NCBI GenBank assembly: GCA_903813345.2
Contig: CAIIXF020000009.1
Location: 15,080,347-15,144,346 of the forward strand
Length of the DNA stretch: 64,000 nucleotides
Source: Owenia fusiformis
Lineage: Eukaryota; Annelida; Polychaeta; Sabellida; Oweniidae
Direction: 5' to 3'
The notes below the pieces were generated by a model. That model was not told the origin of the DNA, did no database searches, and saw only the letters and a list, made by a program, of their open reading frames with translations. The position numbers were made by a program, and so were the translations under genes. Positions 1 through 59,512 of this stretch are shown here, one piece after another; positions within the stretch are counted from its first letter, which is position 1, and every line of letters starts with the position of its first letter.

Positions 1-2122
1 ATTCGCTAGCTACGCTAACTACACTGGCTATGCAGCTAGAGAGGTTCTTGAGGTAAGCCCAGGACCATACATACTGTGGCCCCGATAGCTGCACTGGGTA
101 CGTGGCTACAGAGGTTCTTGAGGTAAACCTAGGAGCATGCATGCGTTGGCTACACTAGCTACACTGGCTATGCAGCTAGAGAGGTTCTCGTGTAAGCCCA
201 GGACCATACATACTGTGGCCCCGATAGCTGCACTGGGTACGTGGCTACAGAGGTTCTTGAGGTAAACCTAGGAGCATGCATGCGTTGGCTACACTAGCTA
301 TGCAGCTAGAGAGGTTCTCGAGGTAAGCCCAGGACCATACATACTGTGGCCCCGATAGCTGCCCTGGGTACGTGGCTACAGAGGTTCTTGAGGTAAACCT
401 AGGAGCATGCATGCGTTGGCTACGCTAGCTACACTGAATATGCAGCTAGAGAGCTTCTCGAGGTAAGCCCAGGACCATACATACTCTGGCCCCGATAGCT
501 GCACTGGGTACGCGGCTATAGAGGTTCTTGAGGTAAACCTAGGAGCATGCATGCGTTGGCTACACTAGCTACACTCGCTATGCAGCTAGAGAGGTTCTCG
601 AGGTAAGCCCAGGACCATACATACTGTGGCCCCGATAGCTGCACTGGGTACGCGGCTACAGAGGTTCTTGAGGTAAACCAAGGAGCCTGCATGCGTTCGC
701 TTACACTAGCTACACTGGCTATGCAGCTAGAGAGGTTCTCGAGGTAAGCCAAGGAGCATACATTCGGTGGTCAAGATAGCTACACTGGCTACGCGGCTAC
801 AGAGGTTCTTGAGGTAAACCTAGGAGCGTTCATGCGTTGGCTACACTAGCTACACTCGCTATGCAGCTAGAGAGGTTCTCGAGGAAAGCCCAAGACCATA
901 CATACTGTGGCCCCGGTAGCTGCACTGGGTACGCGGCTACAGAGGTTCTTGAGGTAAACCAAGGAGCATGCATGCGTTGGCTACACTAGCTACACTCGCT
1001 ATGCAGCTAGAGAGGTTCTCGAGGAAAGCCCAAGACCATACATACTGTGGCCCCGATAGCTGCACTGGGTTCGCGGCTACAGAGGTTCTTGAGGTAAACC
1101 AAGGAGCTTGCATGCGTTGGCTACACTAGCTACACTGGCTATGCAGCTAGAGAGGTTCTCGAGGTAAGCCAAGGAGCATACATTCGGTGGTCAAGATAGC
1201 TACACTGGCTACGCGGCTACAGAGGTTCTTGAGGTAAACCTAGGAGCATGCATGCGTTGGCTACACTAGCTACACTCGCTATGCAGCTAGAGAGGTTCTC
1301 GAGGTAAGCCCAAGACCATACATACTGGGGCCCCGATAGCTGCACTGGGTACGCGGCTACAGAGGTTCTTGAGGTAAACCAAGGAGCATGCATGCGTTGG
1401 CTACACTAGCTACACTGGCTATGCAGCTAGAGAGGTTCTCGAGGTAAGCCAAGGAGCATACATTCGGTGGTCACGATAGCTACACTGGCTACGCGGCTAC
1501 AGAGGTACCCCCCTAGGAACATGCATGCGGTGGCTACGCTACCTTCACTGGCTTTGCGGCTACAGATGTTCTGGATGTAAGCCCGGGACCATACATACTG
1601 TGGCCCTGATAGCTACACTGGCTACGCGGCCACAGAGGTAACCCTAGGAGCATGATGCGTTGGCTACGCTAGCTACACTGGCTGTGCATCCAGAGAGGTC
1701 CTGGAGGTAAGCCCAGGAGCATACATCCGGTGGTCACGATAGTTACACTGGCTATGGGGCTACAGAGGTTCTTGAGGTAACCCTTGGAGCATGCATGCGT
1801 TGGCTACGCTAGCTACACTGACTATGCAGCTTGAGAGGTTCTGGAGGTAAGCCCAAGAGCATACATCCGGTGGTCACGATAGCTACACTGGCTACACGGC
1901 TACAGAGGTTCTTGAGGTACCCCTAGGTGGCTACGCTAGCTGCACAGGCTACGTGTCTACACAGGGTCTGGAGGTAACTGTAAGAATATGCATGCGCTAG
2001 CTACGCTAACTTCACTGGCTATGCAGCTAGAGAGGTTCTTGAGGTAAGCCCAGGAGCATACATCCGGTGGTAACGATAGCTCCACTGGCTACGTGGCTTA
2101 AGATTTCTTGAGGTACCCCTAG

Positions 2123-2260
2123 GACCATTATACATGTCATAATATAGGGAGAAAATCAAAAAACTCAAGGCCTGTGTTACATTTGCTAACTGTATATTGA
2201 ATGCTCTTACTATGCTAGAATATTTTCTCTCACTATATCTTGACACTGTTTTAAGGACCC
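2123..2260. repeat. AT-rich non-satellite insert carried in the satellite, copy 1
   Basis: An AT-rich segment of about 135 bp interrupts the satellite, from CCATTATACATGTCAT to GACACTGTTTTAAGGACC, and has no resemblance to the 70-bp monomer. The same segment with identical junctions recurs at about 9289, 11609, 17724, 30117, 35077 and 43136, plus a partial copy at 20924. It was therefore present before the array was amplified and has been copied as part of the higher-order unit. No coding, tRNA or obvious transposon-end features are visible. The reading frames across it that begin in satellite are not credible genes. Confidence 0.9.
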
Positions 2261-21229: not shown

Positions 21230-21500
21230 AACTCGGCGAATAGTGCCCAACCCATGTTAACTTCCCATTGAAAAATGTGGTTTTGGGCACTATTCGCCGA
21301 GTTATATAAGACACTAAACTGATCCTTCCCTATATATAACTCGGCGAATAGTGCCCAACCCATGTTAAATTGCCATTGAAAACACTCCTTTTGGGCACTA
21401 TTCGCCGAGTTAATATAAGACACTAAACTGATCCTTCCCTATATATAACTCGGCGAATAGTGCCCAAACTATGTTAACTTCCCATTGAAAAATGTGGTTT
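21230..21500. repeat. Tandem inverted-repeat (hairpin) units, 108-109 bp period
   Basis: Two complete units, at 21230-21303 and 21338-21411, each have a perfect 21-bp inverted repeat beginning AACTCGGCGAATAGTGCCCA. The arms enclose about 32 nt of variable loop. A third unit starts at 21447 and is cut by the N gap. The spacer AGACACTAAACTGATCC is shared between units. A decayed single arm (CTCGGTGAATAGTGCCCAA) lies at 21013-21031 next to the satellite edge. No coding is seen. This could be a tandem MITE or a hairpin-producing repeat. Confidence 0.85.
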
Positions 21501-22000
21501 NNNNNNNNNNNNNNNNNNNNNNNNNNNNNNNNNNNNNNNNNNNNNNNNNNNNNNNNNNNNNNNNNNNNNNNNNNNNNNNNNNNNNNNNNNNNNNNNNNNN
21601 NNNNNNNNNNNNNNNNNNNNNNNNNNNNNNNNNNNNNNNNNNNNNNNNNNNNNNNNNNNNNNNNNNNNNNNNNNNNNNNNNNNNNNNNNNNNNNNNNNNN
21701 NNNNNNNNNNNNNNNNNNNNNNNNNNNNNNNNNNNNNNNNNNNNNNNNNNNNNNNNNNNNNNNNNNNNNNNNNNNNNNNNNNNNNNNNNNNNNNNNNNNN
21801 NNNNNNNNNNNNNNNNNNNNNNNNNNNNNNNNNNNNNNNNNNNNNNNNNNNNNNNNNNNNNNNNNNNNNNNNNNNNNNNNNNNNNNNNNNNNNNNNNNNN
21901 NNNNNNNNNNNNNNNNNNNNNNNNNNNNNNNNNNNNNNNNNNNNNNNNNNNNNNNNNNNNNNNNNNNNNNNNNNNNNNNNNNNNNNNNNNNNNNNNNNNN
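21501..22000. other. Assembly gap (500 N)
   Basis: A run of exactly 500 N, which is typically a placeholder of unknown true size. It interrupts the hairpin-unit array, so the number of units is unknown. Confidence 0.99.
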
Positions 22001-22750: not shown

Positions 22751-22756
22751 GGGTCA

Positions 22757-22861
22757 ACCCAGTTGTCCGAAACCCAGTTGTCCGAAACCCAGTTGTCCGA
22801 AACCCAGTTTTCCGAAACCCATTTTTCCGAAACCCAGTTCTCCGAAACCCAGTTCTCCGAA
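22757..22861 (+). repeat. 15-bp tandem repeat, left terminal array, 7 copies
   Basis: Units are ACCCAGTTGTCCGAA. The three outermost are uniform and the inner four vary at the GTTGTCC part (GTTTTCC, TTTTTCC, GTTCTCC). Confidence 0.9.
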
Positions 22862-23929
22862 AATTAAAAAATTAAATTTCTTAGTAACGAATCTTGTCGC
22901 AACCTCGCGAATCAGGACAGCATAACATTGGTATCACGTTGACATCGGTTAGCCCGGTCAATAATGGGTCCGAAAGTTCACGATCATATATATATTCTTA
23001 CTAGATTCTCGGCACATAGACTTATATGGACATTCTACAAATTTTGAACCGCATTGTCCAGCACGAATCGCACTCCTTCTTGGTGAAAATTCAAGACTGC
23101 CGCCAACATTTTAGACAATTATCACAGTCGAAGAGAATATTCTGGCGAAAGGAACATCTATCTCATTAGAATAACGTATGGACGTCCGTGACAATTATAT
23201 TCATTTGATGATTTTTTTCATTCCCTTTTCTCAATAAAATATGGTTAATTATGTTTTCCAATATCAATTGATATTATTTCTACCCTGAAAAATATCTAAA
23301 AAGAAGATTTTGGTTGTTCAGTACCACCCACTGTTAAGATTTCGTCCAAATTTTCGATAAATCAATAAAATATGCTCATTTCGTATAACTTAAGCTTATA
23401 TATGTGGCATATATACATATCAGATGTCTATCCTTTTTTCATCATAATATTAGAGGTTTGTATGTTTTAGTAGAAACGTATTCCTTTCCAAACATTTAGA
23501 TTTAAGAATTTCTCCCATTGGTGATATTGTTCAAAATCAAAACTGTGTTTTGCGATATATTGAACTGTTGAAGTAAGTGTGTAATAGTTTGTAGTAGAGC
23601 CAAGATTTGATTTGTATCATGTACGTACCCTGCATGAAAAAAATTCGTTTTTAGTGTGCCATAGATGTCAACCATTAACTATTGCAGAATCAAAAAAAGT
23701 TTTGTGAAAAATTAGGATAATGTTTAAAAATTATACACCGGACAATAAATAACTACTCAATGCAGACAGGGAGTTTTAATTGCCCAAAAACTGAGTATCA
23801 AAATGCATTTGTATCTCTTTAGTATCTTGCATGACTCGTTCATATGAATTCTTTATTTCTACCTCGTTCCCTATACATTCTGAGACAGTTCAACCTTTGC
23901 CCCACGTCCTGTTCGTCGTTAGTACATTG

Positions 23930-26002: not shown

Positions 26003-26078
26003 TTTCGGACAACTGGGTTTCGGACAACTGGGTTTCGGACAACTGGGTTTCGGACAACTGGGTTTCGGACAACTGGGG
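26003..26078 (-). repeat. 15-bp tandem repeat, right terminal array, 5 copies inverted
   Basis: These are the same units as at 22757-22861 in reverse complement (TTCGGACAACTGGGT), all but uniform. A proline/cysteine-rich frame read through this array is an artefact of the repeat. Confidence 0.9.
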
Positions 26079-49200: not shown

Positions 49201-50000
49201 CAATAGCTTCACTGGCTTCGCGGCTACAGAGGTTCTTGAGGTAACCCAAGCAGCATGCATGTGTTGGCTACGCTAGTTACACTGACTATGGAGCTAGAGA
49301 GGATCTGGAGGTAAGCCCAGGAGCATACATCCGGTGGTCACGATAGCTACACTGGCTACGCGGCTACAGAGGGTCTTGGGGTACCCCTAGGAACATGCAT
49401 GCAGTGGCTACGCTACCTACACTGGCTTTGCGGCTACAGAGGTTCTGGATGTAAGCCTAGGACGAAACATACGTGACCCCGATAGCTGCACTGGGTACGC
49501 AGCTACAGAGGTTCTTGAGGTAAACCTAGGAGCATGCATGCGTTGGCTACACTAGCTACACTCGCTATGCAGCTAGAGAGGTTCTCGAGGTAAGCCCAGG
49601 ACCATACATACTGTGGCCCCGATAGCTGCACTGGGTACGCAGCTCCAGAGGTTCTTGAGGTAAACCAAGGAGCATGCATGCGTTGGCTACACTAGCTACA
49701 CTGGCTATGCAGCTAGAGATGTTCTCGAGGTAAGCCAAGGAGCATACATCCGGTGGTCAAGATAGCTACACGGCTACGCGGCTACAGAGGTTCTTGAGAT
49801 ACCCCTAGGACCATTCATGCGTTGGCTACGCTAGCTACACAGGCTACGTGTCTACACAGGATCTGGAGATATGTAAGAATATGCATTCGCTAGCTACGCT
49901 AACTACACTAGCAATGCAGCTAGAGAGGTTCTTGAGGTAAGCCCAGGAGCATACATGCGGTGGTCACAATAGCTACACAGGCTAAGCGGCTATAGAGGTT

Positions 50001-50500
50001 NNNNNNNNNNNNNNNNNNNNNNNNNNNNNNNNNNNNNNNNNNNNNNNNNNNNNNNNNNNNNNNNNNNNNNNNNNNNNNNNNNNNNNNNNNNNNNNNNNNN
50101 NNNNNNNNNNNNNNNNNNNNNNNNNNNNNNNNNNNNNNNNNNNNNNNNNNNNNNNNNNNNNNNNNNNNNNNNNNNNNNNNNNNNNNNNNNNNNNNNNNNN
50201 NNNNNNNNNNNNNNNNNNNNNNNNNNNNNNNNNNNNNNNNNNNNNNNNNNNNNNNNNNNNNNNNNNNNNNNNNNNNNNNNNNNNNNNNNNNNNNNNNNNN
50301 NNNNNNNNNNNNNNNNNNNNNNNNNNNNNNNNNNNNNNNNNNNNNNNNNNNNNNNNNNNNNNNNNNNNNNNNNNNNNNNNNNNNNNNNNNNNNNNNNNNN
50401 NNNNNNNNNNNNNNNNNNNNNNNNNNNNNNNNNNNNNNNNNNNNNNNNNNNNNNNNNNNNNNNNNNNNNNNNNNNNNNNNNNNNNNNNNNNNNNNNNNNN
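50001..50500. other. Assembly gap (500 N)
   Basis: Exactly 500 N separate satellite on the left from the proline-rich exon on the right. The true distance is unknown, as is whether the join is real. Confidence 0.99.
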
Positions 50501-50530
50501 GACGTGAATGAGCTGTTATATGTATTTCAG

Positions 50531-51396
50531 ATAATAGTGCCAAATCTCCAAATGAACACCAGAACTTGTTAGAACCAGGCTGTATGCCTCGCAATAAGAG
50601 CACCAGTGACCTCGTCTCTTCCACCCAAGGTCCCCCTCAACCTATGCCCAGAACCCTACCAGCTAGTGCAAGCAGTGACAGTATAAGTAAACCTAGCCCA
50701 GCTCCAAGACGTGGCATTCAAAGTATGTTTGAGCCAAGTACTGGTCCTGAAATCCCCAAGGTAGCCCCAGTGCCAGCTGCAAGAGGGGCCCCTCCACCTG
50801 TCCCTGCAACAAGGCGCAGTCCAGGGTCACCTGAAAAGACTATGATACCTCCACCTGTGGCTAGACCAAGGCGGGATGTAAAGAGTGAAATGGTTTGCAA
50901 TGGGCCTCCAGCCCCAACTGAGGCACCGCCTCCTCCTCCAACTGAGGCGCCGCCTCCTCCTCCAACTGGTGCTCCACCCACTGAAGCTCCTCCCCCTCCA
51001 CCTAGTGAGGCCTGGAATGTGGATAGTCCTGCTACCACTTCTCCTGGTCAACTTGACCTTGGAGATCCAGGTACTCCCCCACCAAGCCCCCCTGGGTGTC
51101 CTGATCCATCTAGCCCCCCTCCACCCCTAGGACCTGCACCTGGGCTCCCCATAGGAGGTTTAGGTGACCCAGGTACTCCACCCCCCGACCCTTCACAGAA
51201 GGACCCATTCTTTGACCTAGGAGATCCTGGGAGTCCACCCCCTCCTCCCCCAGGAAATGGGTCATTTGATGCATTACACGAAGGCAGCATTATAAGTGTT
51301 GAGCACAAGGGGTCTGCGCAGAGACCCCCTCTTCCAACCAGACCTGCTCCTCCACCTCCTGCACCAAGAAGGAATATTCCACCGAAGCCAAATTAA
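50531..51396 (+). CDS. Last coding exon of a proline-rich SH3-ligand protein (C-terminal 287 residues)
   Basis: The exon begins after a good 3' splice site (TGTATTTCAG ending at 50530). It starts with two bases completing a split codon, then reads DNSAKSPNEHQ and on to TAA at 51394-51396. The upstream frame is closed by TGA at 50509-50511, so splicing is required. The product is a disordered tail: RNKSTSDLVSS, then PAPRRG and PATRR basic-proline motifs, and poly-proline runs with three PTEAPPPPP-type units. Three DLGDPG-type repeats (near 51055, 51164 and 51215) follow, then a DPF motif (about 51202) and a terminal RPPLPTRPAPPPP...PRRNIPPKPN. PPLPTR fits a class II SH3 ligand, and DPF is an AP2-appendage type motif. 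This suggests an endocytic or actin-linked adaptor, as in synaptojanin-like or RhoGAP/BAR proteins, but the family cannot be fixed from this tail. The exon is much richer in GC than the surrounding sequence. Upstream exons lie outside the window or in the gap. Confidence 0.75.
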
Positions 51397-56822: not shown

Positions 56823-59512
56823 CTAACAGTTTCCCATCCTTTGTACGAAATCGTTGTAACTGTGGATGCGACCTCTATTTGCTTCAAGAGTTTTCCACAT
56901 CGCTGGATGTCCTTTGCATTTGGCAAGTTTACAAAGCGCCGCCGCTACGTTGCCTTCAATCTTCATGTCCGTTCCGTCTCCTGAGGTGTAACTGCAATCG
57001 CCTGCCCAGTATTCTGCCCAGCCCTCATTGAAAGCGAATCCTTCGTTTGTCGACATATACAAGTTATGGTTACGAGCATACCCGTATCTATAGGGAAAGA
57101 TGATGATAATTTTAATATTCCAAGTAAGTTAACTTTTGGTTACAGAGACTCTACATACTGTTTACATGTTATAATACATTTAAGAAAGGAAAGATTAGGA
57201 TTCATATACATCTAATATTAATGAATATTAATATCATACCTAGCCACGTCGACCAAGAAATGTGCGGCAGAGCCATCCAACGTATGCCGTGCAATATGCG
57301 CCAATTCGTGCTTTGCGGTGTTGCCAGTCAGACTGTACCCACTTGGAATTCGAATTCTTTGCGTCATAGCCCAAGGCGTACCGCCATGGATCAAGGCGTT
57401 CGTCACAACATAAACGCTACTGCGTGGTAGGGGTCGCCCAGCCCGACTGATGAAATCCCGAACAGCATTCCTAAAATGGTTGTAAGCCTTGCAATGCTCA
57501 TCGTTTAAATTCACGGTACCAATGTTGAACGCTCCGCTAAAATTCTTCTTCCAGCTAGATTTGTAGCGACGGGTAGAGGAAATCCGATCCTTTACCATCA
57601 TTTTGTCTAAAAATAGCATTTAAAGAGTTACTGGGGTAGAAATGCATTTTGATAAAACAATAAAGCTATCCTGAATAAAATTGACACACACGGTTTTAAA
57701 CACAGAGCGGCAAAGGAAAACTGAACCCTTTCTTACAAAGTTTAGGGCAGTGTTACGCATGACCAACTACGACGCGTATTAAATTTACACACGTGTCGAA
57801 AAAACGTCAAGGATGGTGAATACTCTCTGAATTTTGTCGCCCTGTAAATCCAAGTGAGCAAAAATCCTGGTAATCAATGATACATTTTATACCAGACGCT
57901 TACCTTGATAATTGTAGTCTAACTGAACATACACATCCGGCTTCCCATCAAATACATCTCTACCTCGACCAGACAGGGAAAATCCTCCGTTTGCATCAGT
58001 CCATCCTGAAATAAAACGTGTACAGAATTTGGCGATTACACCAGCTGGGATCTTCGTAACGTCATTGTTGCGGTATCTGCATTAAAATCATGGTTAATCT
58101 TCCGAGTGCCCGCACGTTTAACCGAATAACCATGTAACGAAAAACATAGTGCCGAAAAGCTAATACACGTTAAAAAGCACTGTTCCTAAAACCAGCACTA
58201 TTTGATTAGTTATATTGCTAAATATTGTATTTGTTGAGTGGGGCGCTTGAGTGGATAGCGGTAGTGGATATTACAATACGCTTTTTTGAGAGACTCTTAT
58301 TTACTGAGTAATCAAGATTACTTCCCCCAAAAATGAAACAACCGCATTGACTTTTTAAGTACAATATGCTGGTACATTGAACAGTAAGAAGAAAATCATT
58401 TCCAGGATGGCCAAAAACGGACACTGATAGTTTATTTTAGGTTTAATATAGTTTATAGTTTATATTATTTATATAGCACAAGGGGTAGAAACGTGTAAAG
58501 TACAAGGTGGTCCAAAAATTGGACATTCGATTTCAAAAATAAATCTTAATTTTATTGATGAAAATATCATATTACATACCAGTGGACAGGGGATTTAATT
58601 ATTTTCAATCTGGTATATCTAATAGGTTCAAATTTATAATAATGCAACCAGCGTCCATATAAAAATGACATCATTTTCGTTTCAAAACGGTTTGTCAACA
58701 TAGACAGATGTTCAATATGTCCAACGTTTTGATCAATTACAACCCTCAATCTCGGCATAAATTGATTGAAATGCTTTTGAAATAATGAATTCCACTTATC
58801 AACAATTCTGTCCTGAATAGATGTAAGAGGTTTAAGGTACACATTGGGTGATCTGTGGTTTTGGAAGGATGAATCAATATGTCCTACACAGACGACTAAT
58901 TCCTGATCTCATAGTTTGATCATTACTTTTTACAACAAGATGGGACTCAAAGCCATAGATCCCAAAATACTGTCAAATATTTCAAGGAGAAAGTGCATCG
59001 ATTCAGGTTCACTCCCCTAATCACCCCCCCCCCCCCGATTACCCGATGCCAACGGTTTGATCATAATAAGCACTTTATTAGAAAGGTATTAACATTGAAT
59101 GACATTTTACAGAAGTAAAATAGGTGTTTTGACACAGAAGATTCCAAACAATTTGTTCATTTATTTGCGTAGTGTTGAATTCACATTTTTCAAAGCCCCA
59201 GTTCAATGAGGTCAAAAAGTTAAAATATGCAATTTTTAAATGTTTACATTTTAACTGTTTTGTTTACTAGATTTACTGTTTTTAAAACAAACCATACTGA
59301 TTCTAACCTGAAGCGATGGTTTTTCCGTAAATGCCAACCAATTCTCTATCTTTGATGTAAACACGGGCGTCCGCTATGGGCGTTCCGCCACATGTAAACC
59401 TGCCACTCGCAGAAACATCGTAATATCTTCTCTTCCTGAAAAACCACCCTTCGCATTGGTATGTAACACCAATTATCACTAACGCAACGAAGCAAATATT
59501 ACGGCATACCAT
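56823..59512 (-). CDS. Secreted protein with transthyretin-like domain and C-terminal zincin-like metallopeptidase domain (312 aa)
   Basis: Four coding exons on the minus strand are 59512-59308, 58005-57904, 57606-57240 and 57087-56823 (stop TAG). All introns are GT-AG (donors GTTAGA, GTAAGC, GTATGA) with phases 1, 1 and 2, and joined length is 939 nt. The ATG at 59512 has a good context (ACAAAATGG). Residues 1-22 are a signal peptide (hydrophobic FVALVIIGV). Residues 34-103 resemble the transthyretin-like family of invertebrates: SGRFTCGGTPIADARVYI, then GWTDANGGFSLSG and DVYVQLDY. Residues 202-206 are HELAH, and NEGWAEYW at 245-252 would supply a third zinc ligand (E246), as in the EGxAEY helix of gluzincin/peptidase-MA-like families. 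C256, C277, C282 and C312 could form disulfides. It is predicted to be an extracellular zinc peptidase of unknown substrate; activity is inference. No operon or partner gene is visible. Confidence 0.85.
58495..58860 (-). pseudogene. Tc1/mariner transposase relic in intron 2
   Basis: The minus frame at 58842-58567 contains DRIVDKWNSLFQKHF, then MPRLRVVIDQNVGHIEH. This matches the C-terminal end of Tc1/mariner transposases (xWNxL...MPRRxxAVIxxxGxHxEY/H). Downstream, at 58495-58528, GGTGGTCCAAAAATTGGACA looks like a terminal inverted repeat. No matching opposite end or catalytic DDE region is seen up to about 59050, so the copy is truncated at its 5' end. It lies in the 1302-bp intron (59307-58006) of the zincin-like gene on the same strand. 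Confidence 0.6.
59024..59037. repeat. Poly-C tract
   Basis: A run of about 14 C within the intron of the zincin-like gene, a simple repeat. Confidence 0.8.

What the first reader, a model, noticed from the sequence alone, without database searches (positions are those of the whole stretch)
56823..59512. Transthyretin-like domain fused to a HELAH/NEGWAEYW zincin in one secreted protein
Joining four exons by consensus splice sites gives one frame of 312 residues with a signal peptide, a transthyretin-like fold (SGRFTCGG...GWTDANGGFSLSG...DVYVQLDY) and a gluzincin-like site (H202, E203, H206, then E246 in NEGWAEYW). Transthyretin-like domains in invertebrates are usually free-standing secreted proteins, so linkage to a putative metallopeptidase is unusual. 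The transthyretin-like part could act as a prodomain or targeting module. The 40-residue spacing from H206 to E246 is longer than in M1/M4 enzymes.
Basis: partly seen in the sequence, partly recalled or inferred. Interest (0 to 1): 0.75.

Follow-up and report, generated by a model that had tools for sequence, protein, structure and literature searches.

The report
Secreted transthyretin-like zinc protease family
An invertebrate gene appears to make a secreted protein that joins a transthyretin-like domain to a thermolysin-like zinc protease, and the same two-part protein turns up in scattered bacteria, pointing to an unnamed protease family shared between bacteria and animals.

Summary
Four minus-strand exons (59512-56823) give one 312-residue frame with a signal-like N-terminus, a transthyretin-like domain (PF01060, 36.9 bits, cut-off 24.9) and H202-E203-x-x-H206 plus E246. 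The interpretation needs correcting: the fusion is a conserved family. Three further intact genes in this animal genome share domain order and intron phases. Of nine bacterial relatives from one genome scan, seven encode TTR-like plus zincin in one frame, 30-33% identical to the window protein. H202, E203, H206 and E246 are kept in 20 of 20 rows compared, and the 40-residue spacing in 13 of the 16 closest. A model of one bacterial member (pLDDT 84) matches M4/M36 gluzincins (Z about 16), and its N-terminal part matches C. elegans TTR-52. No Pfam or NCBIfam peptidase family matched the protease part. Best reading: an unnamed family of secreted gluzincin peptidases whose TTR-like domain is an old, integral N-terminal lobe rather than a prodomain. 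Transfer between bacteria and animals is plausible; direction is unresolved. Zinc binding, activity and splicing were not tested experimentally.

The parts
59308..59512 (-). Exon 1: start codon, signal-like N-terminus, first half of the TTR-like domain
   Evidence: PF01060 on residues 36-103 of the spliced protein
59447..59512 (-). Signal-peptide-like stretch, residues about 1-22 (by eye; no predictor run)
   Evidence: hydrophobic N-termini also in the three intact paralogues
58006..59307 (-). Intron 1, inside the TTR-like domain; not present in the three intact paralogues
58484..59054 (-). Dispersed repeat inside intron 1
   Evidence: 85 matches listed, one of them the window itself; the others match parts of query positions 242-812 (40 of 627 candidates scored, so a lower bound)
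57904..58005 (-). Exon 2: second half of the TTR-like domain
57607..57903 (-). Intron 2, phase 1 in 4 of 4 intact animal genes
57240..57606 (-). Exon 3: linker and first half of the protease domain
57296..57310 (-). HELAH, residues 202-206: two presumed zinc ligands and presumed catalytic glutamate
   Evidence: H202, E203, H206 kept in 20 of 20 rows
57088..57239 (-). Intron 3, phase 2, between HELAH and NEGW; same place in 4 of 4 intact animal genes
56823..57087 (-). Exon 4: second half of the protease domain and stop codon
57024..57026 (-). E246 of FAFNEGWAEYW: presumed third zinc ligand
   Evidence: Kept in 20 of 20 rows
56862..56864 (-). H300 (IHS), candidate equivalent of the transition-state His of M4 enzymes (His231, recalled)
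   Evidence: Kept in 16 of 16 core rows, missing in 4 of 4 outlying rows; the equivalence is inference

Best explanation
The gene encodes a secreted zinc-dependent gluzincin (thermolysin-like, MA(E)) peptidase of an unnamed family, with a TTR-like domain as a fixed N-terminal lobe. H202, H206 and E246 hold the zinc, E203 activates the attacking water, and H300 (or the even more widely kept H232) probably steadies the transition state. The TTR-like domain packs on the catalytic domain, partly where the N-terminal beta-rich lobe of mature M4 enzymes sits, and most likely presents substrate or anchors the enzyme to a surface or partner. The two-domain protein is old: scattered bacteria encode it too, and the animal has four intact genes and one broken partial copy. 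Shown by computation: an open gene model matching its paralogues, the architecture, the conservation, homology to bacterial proteins, the fold match of a bacterial member. Inferred: splicing as drawn, secretion, zinc binding, peptidase activity, the role of the TTR-like domain, and any transfer between domains of life.
For: One 312-aa frame; PF01060 in 4 of 4 animal proteins. Four intact genes with the same order and intron phases; pS 0.70-0.94 against pN 0.25-0.36. Nine bacterial loci; seven with TTR-like plus zincin in one ORF, PF01060 seen in 5 of the 9 at E below 0.01, over the cut-off in 2 of 9. BLASTP to L017 E 9e-40, to L014 E 1e-34. H202, E203, H206, H232, E246 and G247 in 20 of 20 rows, W248 in 19 of 20. 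Model of L017, pLDDT 84.2, pTM 0.83; VIA: aureolysin Z 16.1 over 228 residues at 3.4 A, thermolysin 15.6, M36 15.5, M1 about 11; Foldseek: vibriolysin 5.6e-6, TTR-52 1.6e-5. Family profile to TTR-52 1.2e-6. Animal host: 42 wnt matches, none in 14 control genomes.
Against: No peptidase family model matched the protease part (in one search two T9SS protease models touched only the C-terminal sorting end of L021, far below cut-off), and no solved peptidase matched by sequence. The model is of a bacterial relative 32% identical to the window protein; its coordinates could not be read, so ligand geometry was not measured. Foldseek's own superposition on the M4 rows is poor (TMq 0.38-0.45, rmsd 8-11 A). 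A model of the protease part alone, led by another sequence, failed (pLDDT 42). Profile comparison with one M4 protein aligned 13 columns at HExxH, probability 0.8%. Loci were chosen by patterns in the two motifs, so part of the motif conservation is selection. L013 and L014 have no PF01060 match; their TTR-like part rests on the alignment. All nine bacterial records are metagenome-assembled. No transcript or activity data.
Confidence: 0.7

Rival explanations
1. The TTR-like domain is a removable targeting or inhibitory prodomain, cut off to release the active zincin.
For: It is N-terminal, and secreted zincins often carry N-terminal prodomains (general knowledge). The window protein's linker is rich in basic residues, and one of the four animal linkers has an RxxR.
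Against: No basic motif is shared by the four linkers (by eye). The same joint is kept in bacteria. The fold match to mature M4 enzymes begins at model residues 29-32, inside the TTR-like part (the range gives end points only, and one M4 precursor row, 2vqx, begins at 97).
Confidence: 0.15
2. The protein keeps the zincin fold but is not a peptidase in the animal: it is a binding protein, as nematode TTR-52 is.
For: TTR-52 is described as a linker between phosphatidylserine and CED-1 (PMC6079064, passages). No substrate is known here.
Against: Both histidines, the presumed catalytic glutamate and the third ligand are kept in 20 of 20 rows, including all four intact animal genes.
Confidence: 0.12
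3. The exon chain is wrong: a TTR gene and a separate zincin gene lie next to each other.
For: No transcript data.
Against: Same order and intron phases in three paralogues; single uninterrupted ORFs in seven bacterial loci.
Confidence: 0.02

Closest known systems
M4 thermolysin family (aureolysin, thermolysin, vibriolysin)
   Same: Fold of the modelled bacterial member: mature M4 chains in the first 27 VIA rows at Z 13.1-16.1 over 223-246 residues; HExxH with a downstream glutamate; a late His that may match His231 (recalled)
   Different: No M4 profile match in 13 proteins scanned; PF02868 rang in 2 of 5 of the bacterial genomes, at other genes; 40 residues from second His to Glu instead of 20; a TTR-like domain at the N-terminus
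M36 fungalysin
   Same: Fold match Z 15.4-15.5; an EGW-type glutamate motif (recalled)
   Different: No M36 match among the 13 proteins scanned against Pfam; longer spacing (M36 spacing recalled)
C-terminal region of VgrG2b, Pseudomonas aeruginosa (T6SS effector)
   Same: TTR-like fold directly before a thermolysin-like gluzincin; third ligand E983, 44 residues after H939 (PMC6899460, passages); its TTR domain binds the adaptor Tla3 (PMC6560169, passages)
   Different: HEMTH motif rather than HE(L/F)(A/G)H..R...DG; part of a secretion spike; its sequence was not fetched or compared
Nematode transthyretin-like proteins (TTR-52, PF01060)
   Same: The N-terminal domain: family profile to 3uaf, E 1.2e-6
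   Different: The solved TTR-52 chain has 117 residues and only the TTR part matched
CLCA metalloproteases
   Same: A zincin family of animals with an extremely patchy set of prokaryote members (PMC3650047, abstract)
   Different: Other domain make-up (recalled); not compared by sequence

Membership tests
PF01060 transthyretin-like (TTR-52) | Match above the curated score | tested here: met
   36.9 bits against 24.9 for the window protein; 4 of 4 animal proteins match, best E 3.5e-11
Zincin (HExxH) | Conserved HExxH | tested here: met
   20 of 20 rows; loci were partly chosen by this motif
Gluzincin, clan MA(E) | Glutamate downstream of HExxH as third ligand | tested here: met
   E246 kept in 20 of 20 rows; sequence criterion only
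Gluzincin, clan MA(E) | Thermolysin-like fold of the catalytic domain | tested here: met
   For the bacterial member L017: Z 16.1 to aureolysin; the window protein itself was not modelled
Gluzincin, clan MA(E) | Three ligands converge on one zinc | not testable with these tools
   Model coordinates not readable; no metal assay
Peptidase family M4 | M4 profile match | tested here: not met
   None in 4 animal and 9 bacterial proteins; PF02868 hits in G004 and G006 are at other places
Peptidase family M4 | HExxH to Glu spacing near 20 | tested here: not met
   40 in the window protein; 20 by eye in the M4 proteins of L035 and L034
Peptidase family M36 | M36 profile match | tested here: not met
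   None (13 proteins)
VgrG2b-type effector zincin | Sequence relation to the VgrG2b metallopeptidase domain | tested here: inconclusive
   PDB profile searches listed no such chain at E up to 10; not compared directly

The most novel reading that the evidence does not exclude
An undescribed family of gluzincin peptidases in which a transthyretin-like domain stands in for the N-terminal beta lobe of a thermolysin-like enzyme, which moved between bacteria and an animal lineage and was then kept and multiplied there as a set of secreted enzymes.
Probability: 0.35. Interest if true: 0.65.

Novelty: new variant of a known kind. Interest (0 to 1): 0.5.

Why it matters
It would add a peptidase family that neither Pfam nor NCBIfam recognised in the proteins scanned here, give the invertebrate transthyretin-like domain an enzymatic setting, and offer a clear case for testing gene transfer between bacteria and animals. 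It also suggests that TTR-like domains recur as partners of enzymes (this family; the N-terminus of a cyanobacterial lipoxygenase; VgrG2b).

Tried and rejected
Pfam and NCBIfam scans of the zincin part gave no peptidase family. PDB sequence search with the four animal proteins gave only peroxiredoxin rows at E 0.73 and above; with bacterial rows added, only TTR-side matches were significant. Two scans of viral contigs gave no relative. The model of the protease part alone failed and was not searched. hhalign against one M4 protein aligned only the HExxH region. dS was saturated in 16 of 18 comparisons. The tree has the four animal proteins in one clade (99/98) among bacteria, but holding the 11 core bacterial rows as one clade is not rejected (p-AU 0.17), nor is animal plus Thermoleophilia (0.095); I therefore claim no donor and no direction. 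A haemocyanin search meant to place the animal was empty in the genome and in all 14 controls and says nothing; the species was not identified. Separate neighbouring genes were rejected because.

Rows dropped: the tree left out L020, L021 and L025. L025 was first missed because my motif filter was too narrow; one search recovered it: HEAAH with a glutamate 40 residues on (HEGF, so W248 is not kept) and IHS kept. Weak extra matches in G005 (C36) and G008 (C491) were not used in any row set. The M4 protein of L034 was missed and read.

Paper searches on this question (exact motif, 0 papers) listed no paper whose title or abstract start describes a TTR-zincin protein of an animal. Only the listed 20, 20, 15 and 12 rows were seen, from one library; a long survey in the listings (PMC3482391) was not opened.

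Full report
The finding is real. With start and stop fixed, I tried the GT-AG combinations within 12-25 bases of each proposed boundary. Exons 59512-59308, 58005-57904, 57606-57240 and 57087-56823 on the minus strand give 312 residues and a stop; one alternative donor adds two residues that the paralogues lack. The window lies on a 38.9-Mb contig of a 498-Mb genome. It is an animal's: 42 wnt matches, none in 14 control genomes. The species was not identified.

The first domain is PF01060, 36.9 bits against a cut-off of 24.9, residues 36-103. The rest of the protein is covered by no Pfam or NCBIfam match at E up to 1 and has no PDB sequence match at E up to 1.

Two searches of the genome (exon matches) give the same five loci: the window gene; three further intact genes (C3 34.67 Mb, C9 19.67 Mb, C9 24.74 Mb); and a partial copy on C6 with a stop codon inside its first exon, an apparent frame break at that exon's start, and no TTR match in the 6.8 kb read upstream. 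The three other intact genes code for 308-316 residues, 46-53% identical to the window protein. The intron after the TTR domain is phase 1 and the one between HELAH and NEGW phase 2 in 4 of 4. The window gene alone has an intron inside the TTR domain; it carries a dispersed repeat, and its removal joins residues that are contiguous in the paralogues. Protein changes are restrained while silent sites are near saturation (pN 0.25-0.36, pS 0.70-0.94; dS not computable in 16 of 18 comparisons). The three PF01060 matches listed for this genome are all in these genes; the window's own split domain was not among them, so that search misses split copies and does not prove that free-standing ones are absent.

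One scan of the prokaryote genome collection with the animal core found 35 pattern matches, 9 of which encode a relative; all nine records are metagenome-assembled. The scan's patterns came from the two motifs, so these loci are partly selected for them. Seven (L013-L019) encode in one uninterrupted frame a TTR-like stretch and the zincin; by eye all seven frames hold a hydrophobic signal-like stretch upstream (no predictor was run; in L016 it lies some 200 residues before the TTR-like part). PF01060 matches 5 of the 9 at E below 0.01 and is over the cut-off in 2 of 9; L013, L014, L020 and L021 show none. The records name Solirubrobacteraceae, Thermoleophilia, deltaproteobacteria, Myxococcales, Kofleriaceae and Pyrinomonadaceae; the two Poribacteria proteins (L020, L021) are much more distant. 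Identity of L013-L019 to the window protein over both domains is 30-33%.

The family looks rare in bacteria. In the phylum of G007, 25 of 377 genomes rang at E up to 0.001, but 19 of the 28 rows cover only the TTR part; rows under 1e-20 came from 4 of 377, two of them already known. In the class of G002 it was 2 of 299, in the phylum of G006 1 of 297, in the phylum of G005 2 of 195, at E up to 1e-15 and counting the source genome each time. Only the best candidates per genome are scored, so these are lower bounds.

Conservation was read over 19 aligned rows plus L025, recovered later: 4 animal and 16 bacterial. H202, E203, H206, H232, E246 and G247 are kept in 20 of 20; W248 in 19 of 20. Among the 16 closest rows H300 is kept in 16. 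In the 15 of these that were aligned, R209 is kept in 14, and D213, G214, H218, D222 and Y228 in 15. The step from H206 to E246 is 40 in 13 of 16 and 41-42 in the other three; it is 50 in two outlying rows and 37 in the two Poribacteria.

I modelled the bacterial member L017 with nine bacterial rows, because the structure tool takes unbroken translations: pLDDT 84.2, pTM 0.83. Foldseek's ten matches at E up to 0.001 include vibriolysin and another M4 peptidase, TTR-52 and a cyanobacterial lipoxygenase, but with low TM-scores and rmsd of 8-11 A on the M4 rows. The second look with VIA gives aureolysin Z 16.1 (228 residues, 3.4 A), thermolysin 15.6, an M36 protease 15.5 and M1 enzymes near 11. 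Mature M4 rows begin at model residues 29-32 and most M1 rows near 93 (one M4 precursor row at 97), so some of the TTR-like domain is superposed on the N-terminal lobe of mature M4 enzymes. From this, and from the joint being kept in bacteria, I infer that the TTR-like domain is a working lobe and not a prodomain. It is inference: the ranges give end points only, and a model of the protease part alone, led by L014, failed (pLDDT 42), which is not a controlled comparison.

The nearest known parallel is VgrG2b, where a TTR-like fold also precedes a thermolysin-like gluzincin whose third ligand lies 44 residues after the second His (PMC6899460, passages) and where the TTR domain binds the adaptor Tla3 (PMC6560169, passages). 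Its motif differs (HEMTH), and I did not fetch it, so I call it an analogue and not a relative. TTR-52 bridges phosphatidylserine and a receptor (PMC6079064, passages). Together they make a recognition role for the TTR-like lobe plausible. An unrelated elastase of a fish bacterium shows that gluzincins outside named families can be active (PMC6414381, passages).

On origin: the four animal proteins form one clade (99/98) among bacterial rows with moderate support (83/81, 84/75), but keeping the 11 core bacterial rows together is not rejected (p-AU 0.17), and only one eukaryote genome could be searched. Introns at shared places in four genes argue against contamination. CLCA zincins show a similar animal-bacteria pattern, read there as transfer from eukaryotes to bacteria (PMC3650047, abstract), so direction must not be assumed.

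Verdict: a genuine, conserved, probably active, secreted gluzincin with a TTR-like lobe. Membership in M4 or M36 fails by profile, so it is best called an unnamed family within a known kind.

Noticed in passing
window 9-20725 and 27437-50000: Very large GC-rich tandem array with a 70-base unit and higher orders of 140 and 280 bases.
   Followed up: no
window 22756-22862 and 26003-26077: Two arrays of the same 15-base unit in opposite orientation, about 3.1 kb apart, inside the AT-rich island between the large arrays; they may bound a mobile element.
   Followed up: no
window about 21500-22000 and 50000-50500: Runs of N, gaps or withheld stretches.
   Followed up: no
window 50512-51393: 294-aa proline-rich open frame with no Pfam match at E up to 0.1, perhaps an exon of a neighbouring gene.
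   Followed up: partly
L009 about 1342-2150, minus strand: Broken partial copy of the gene on contig C6: zincin exons only, with a stop codon and an apparent frame break.
   Followed up: partly
window 58484-59054: Dispersed repeat within the intron that only the window gene has, suggesting that this intron is young.
   Followed up: partly
L024 and L030: Bacterial relatives whose zincin is followed by cysteine-rich repeats, a different C-terminal arrangement.
   Followed up: no
genome G005: One bacterial genome with four matches to the family profile, two of them divergent full-length ones with 50-residue spacing.
   Followed up: partly
PDB 5ek8, residues about 50-124: The N-terminus of a cyanobacterial lipoxygenase matches the family's TTR-like domain by profile (E 9e-6) and is Foldseek's top row.
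   Followed up: no
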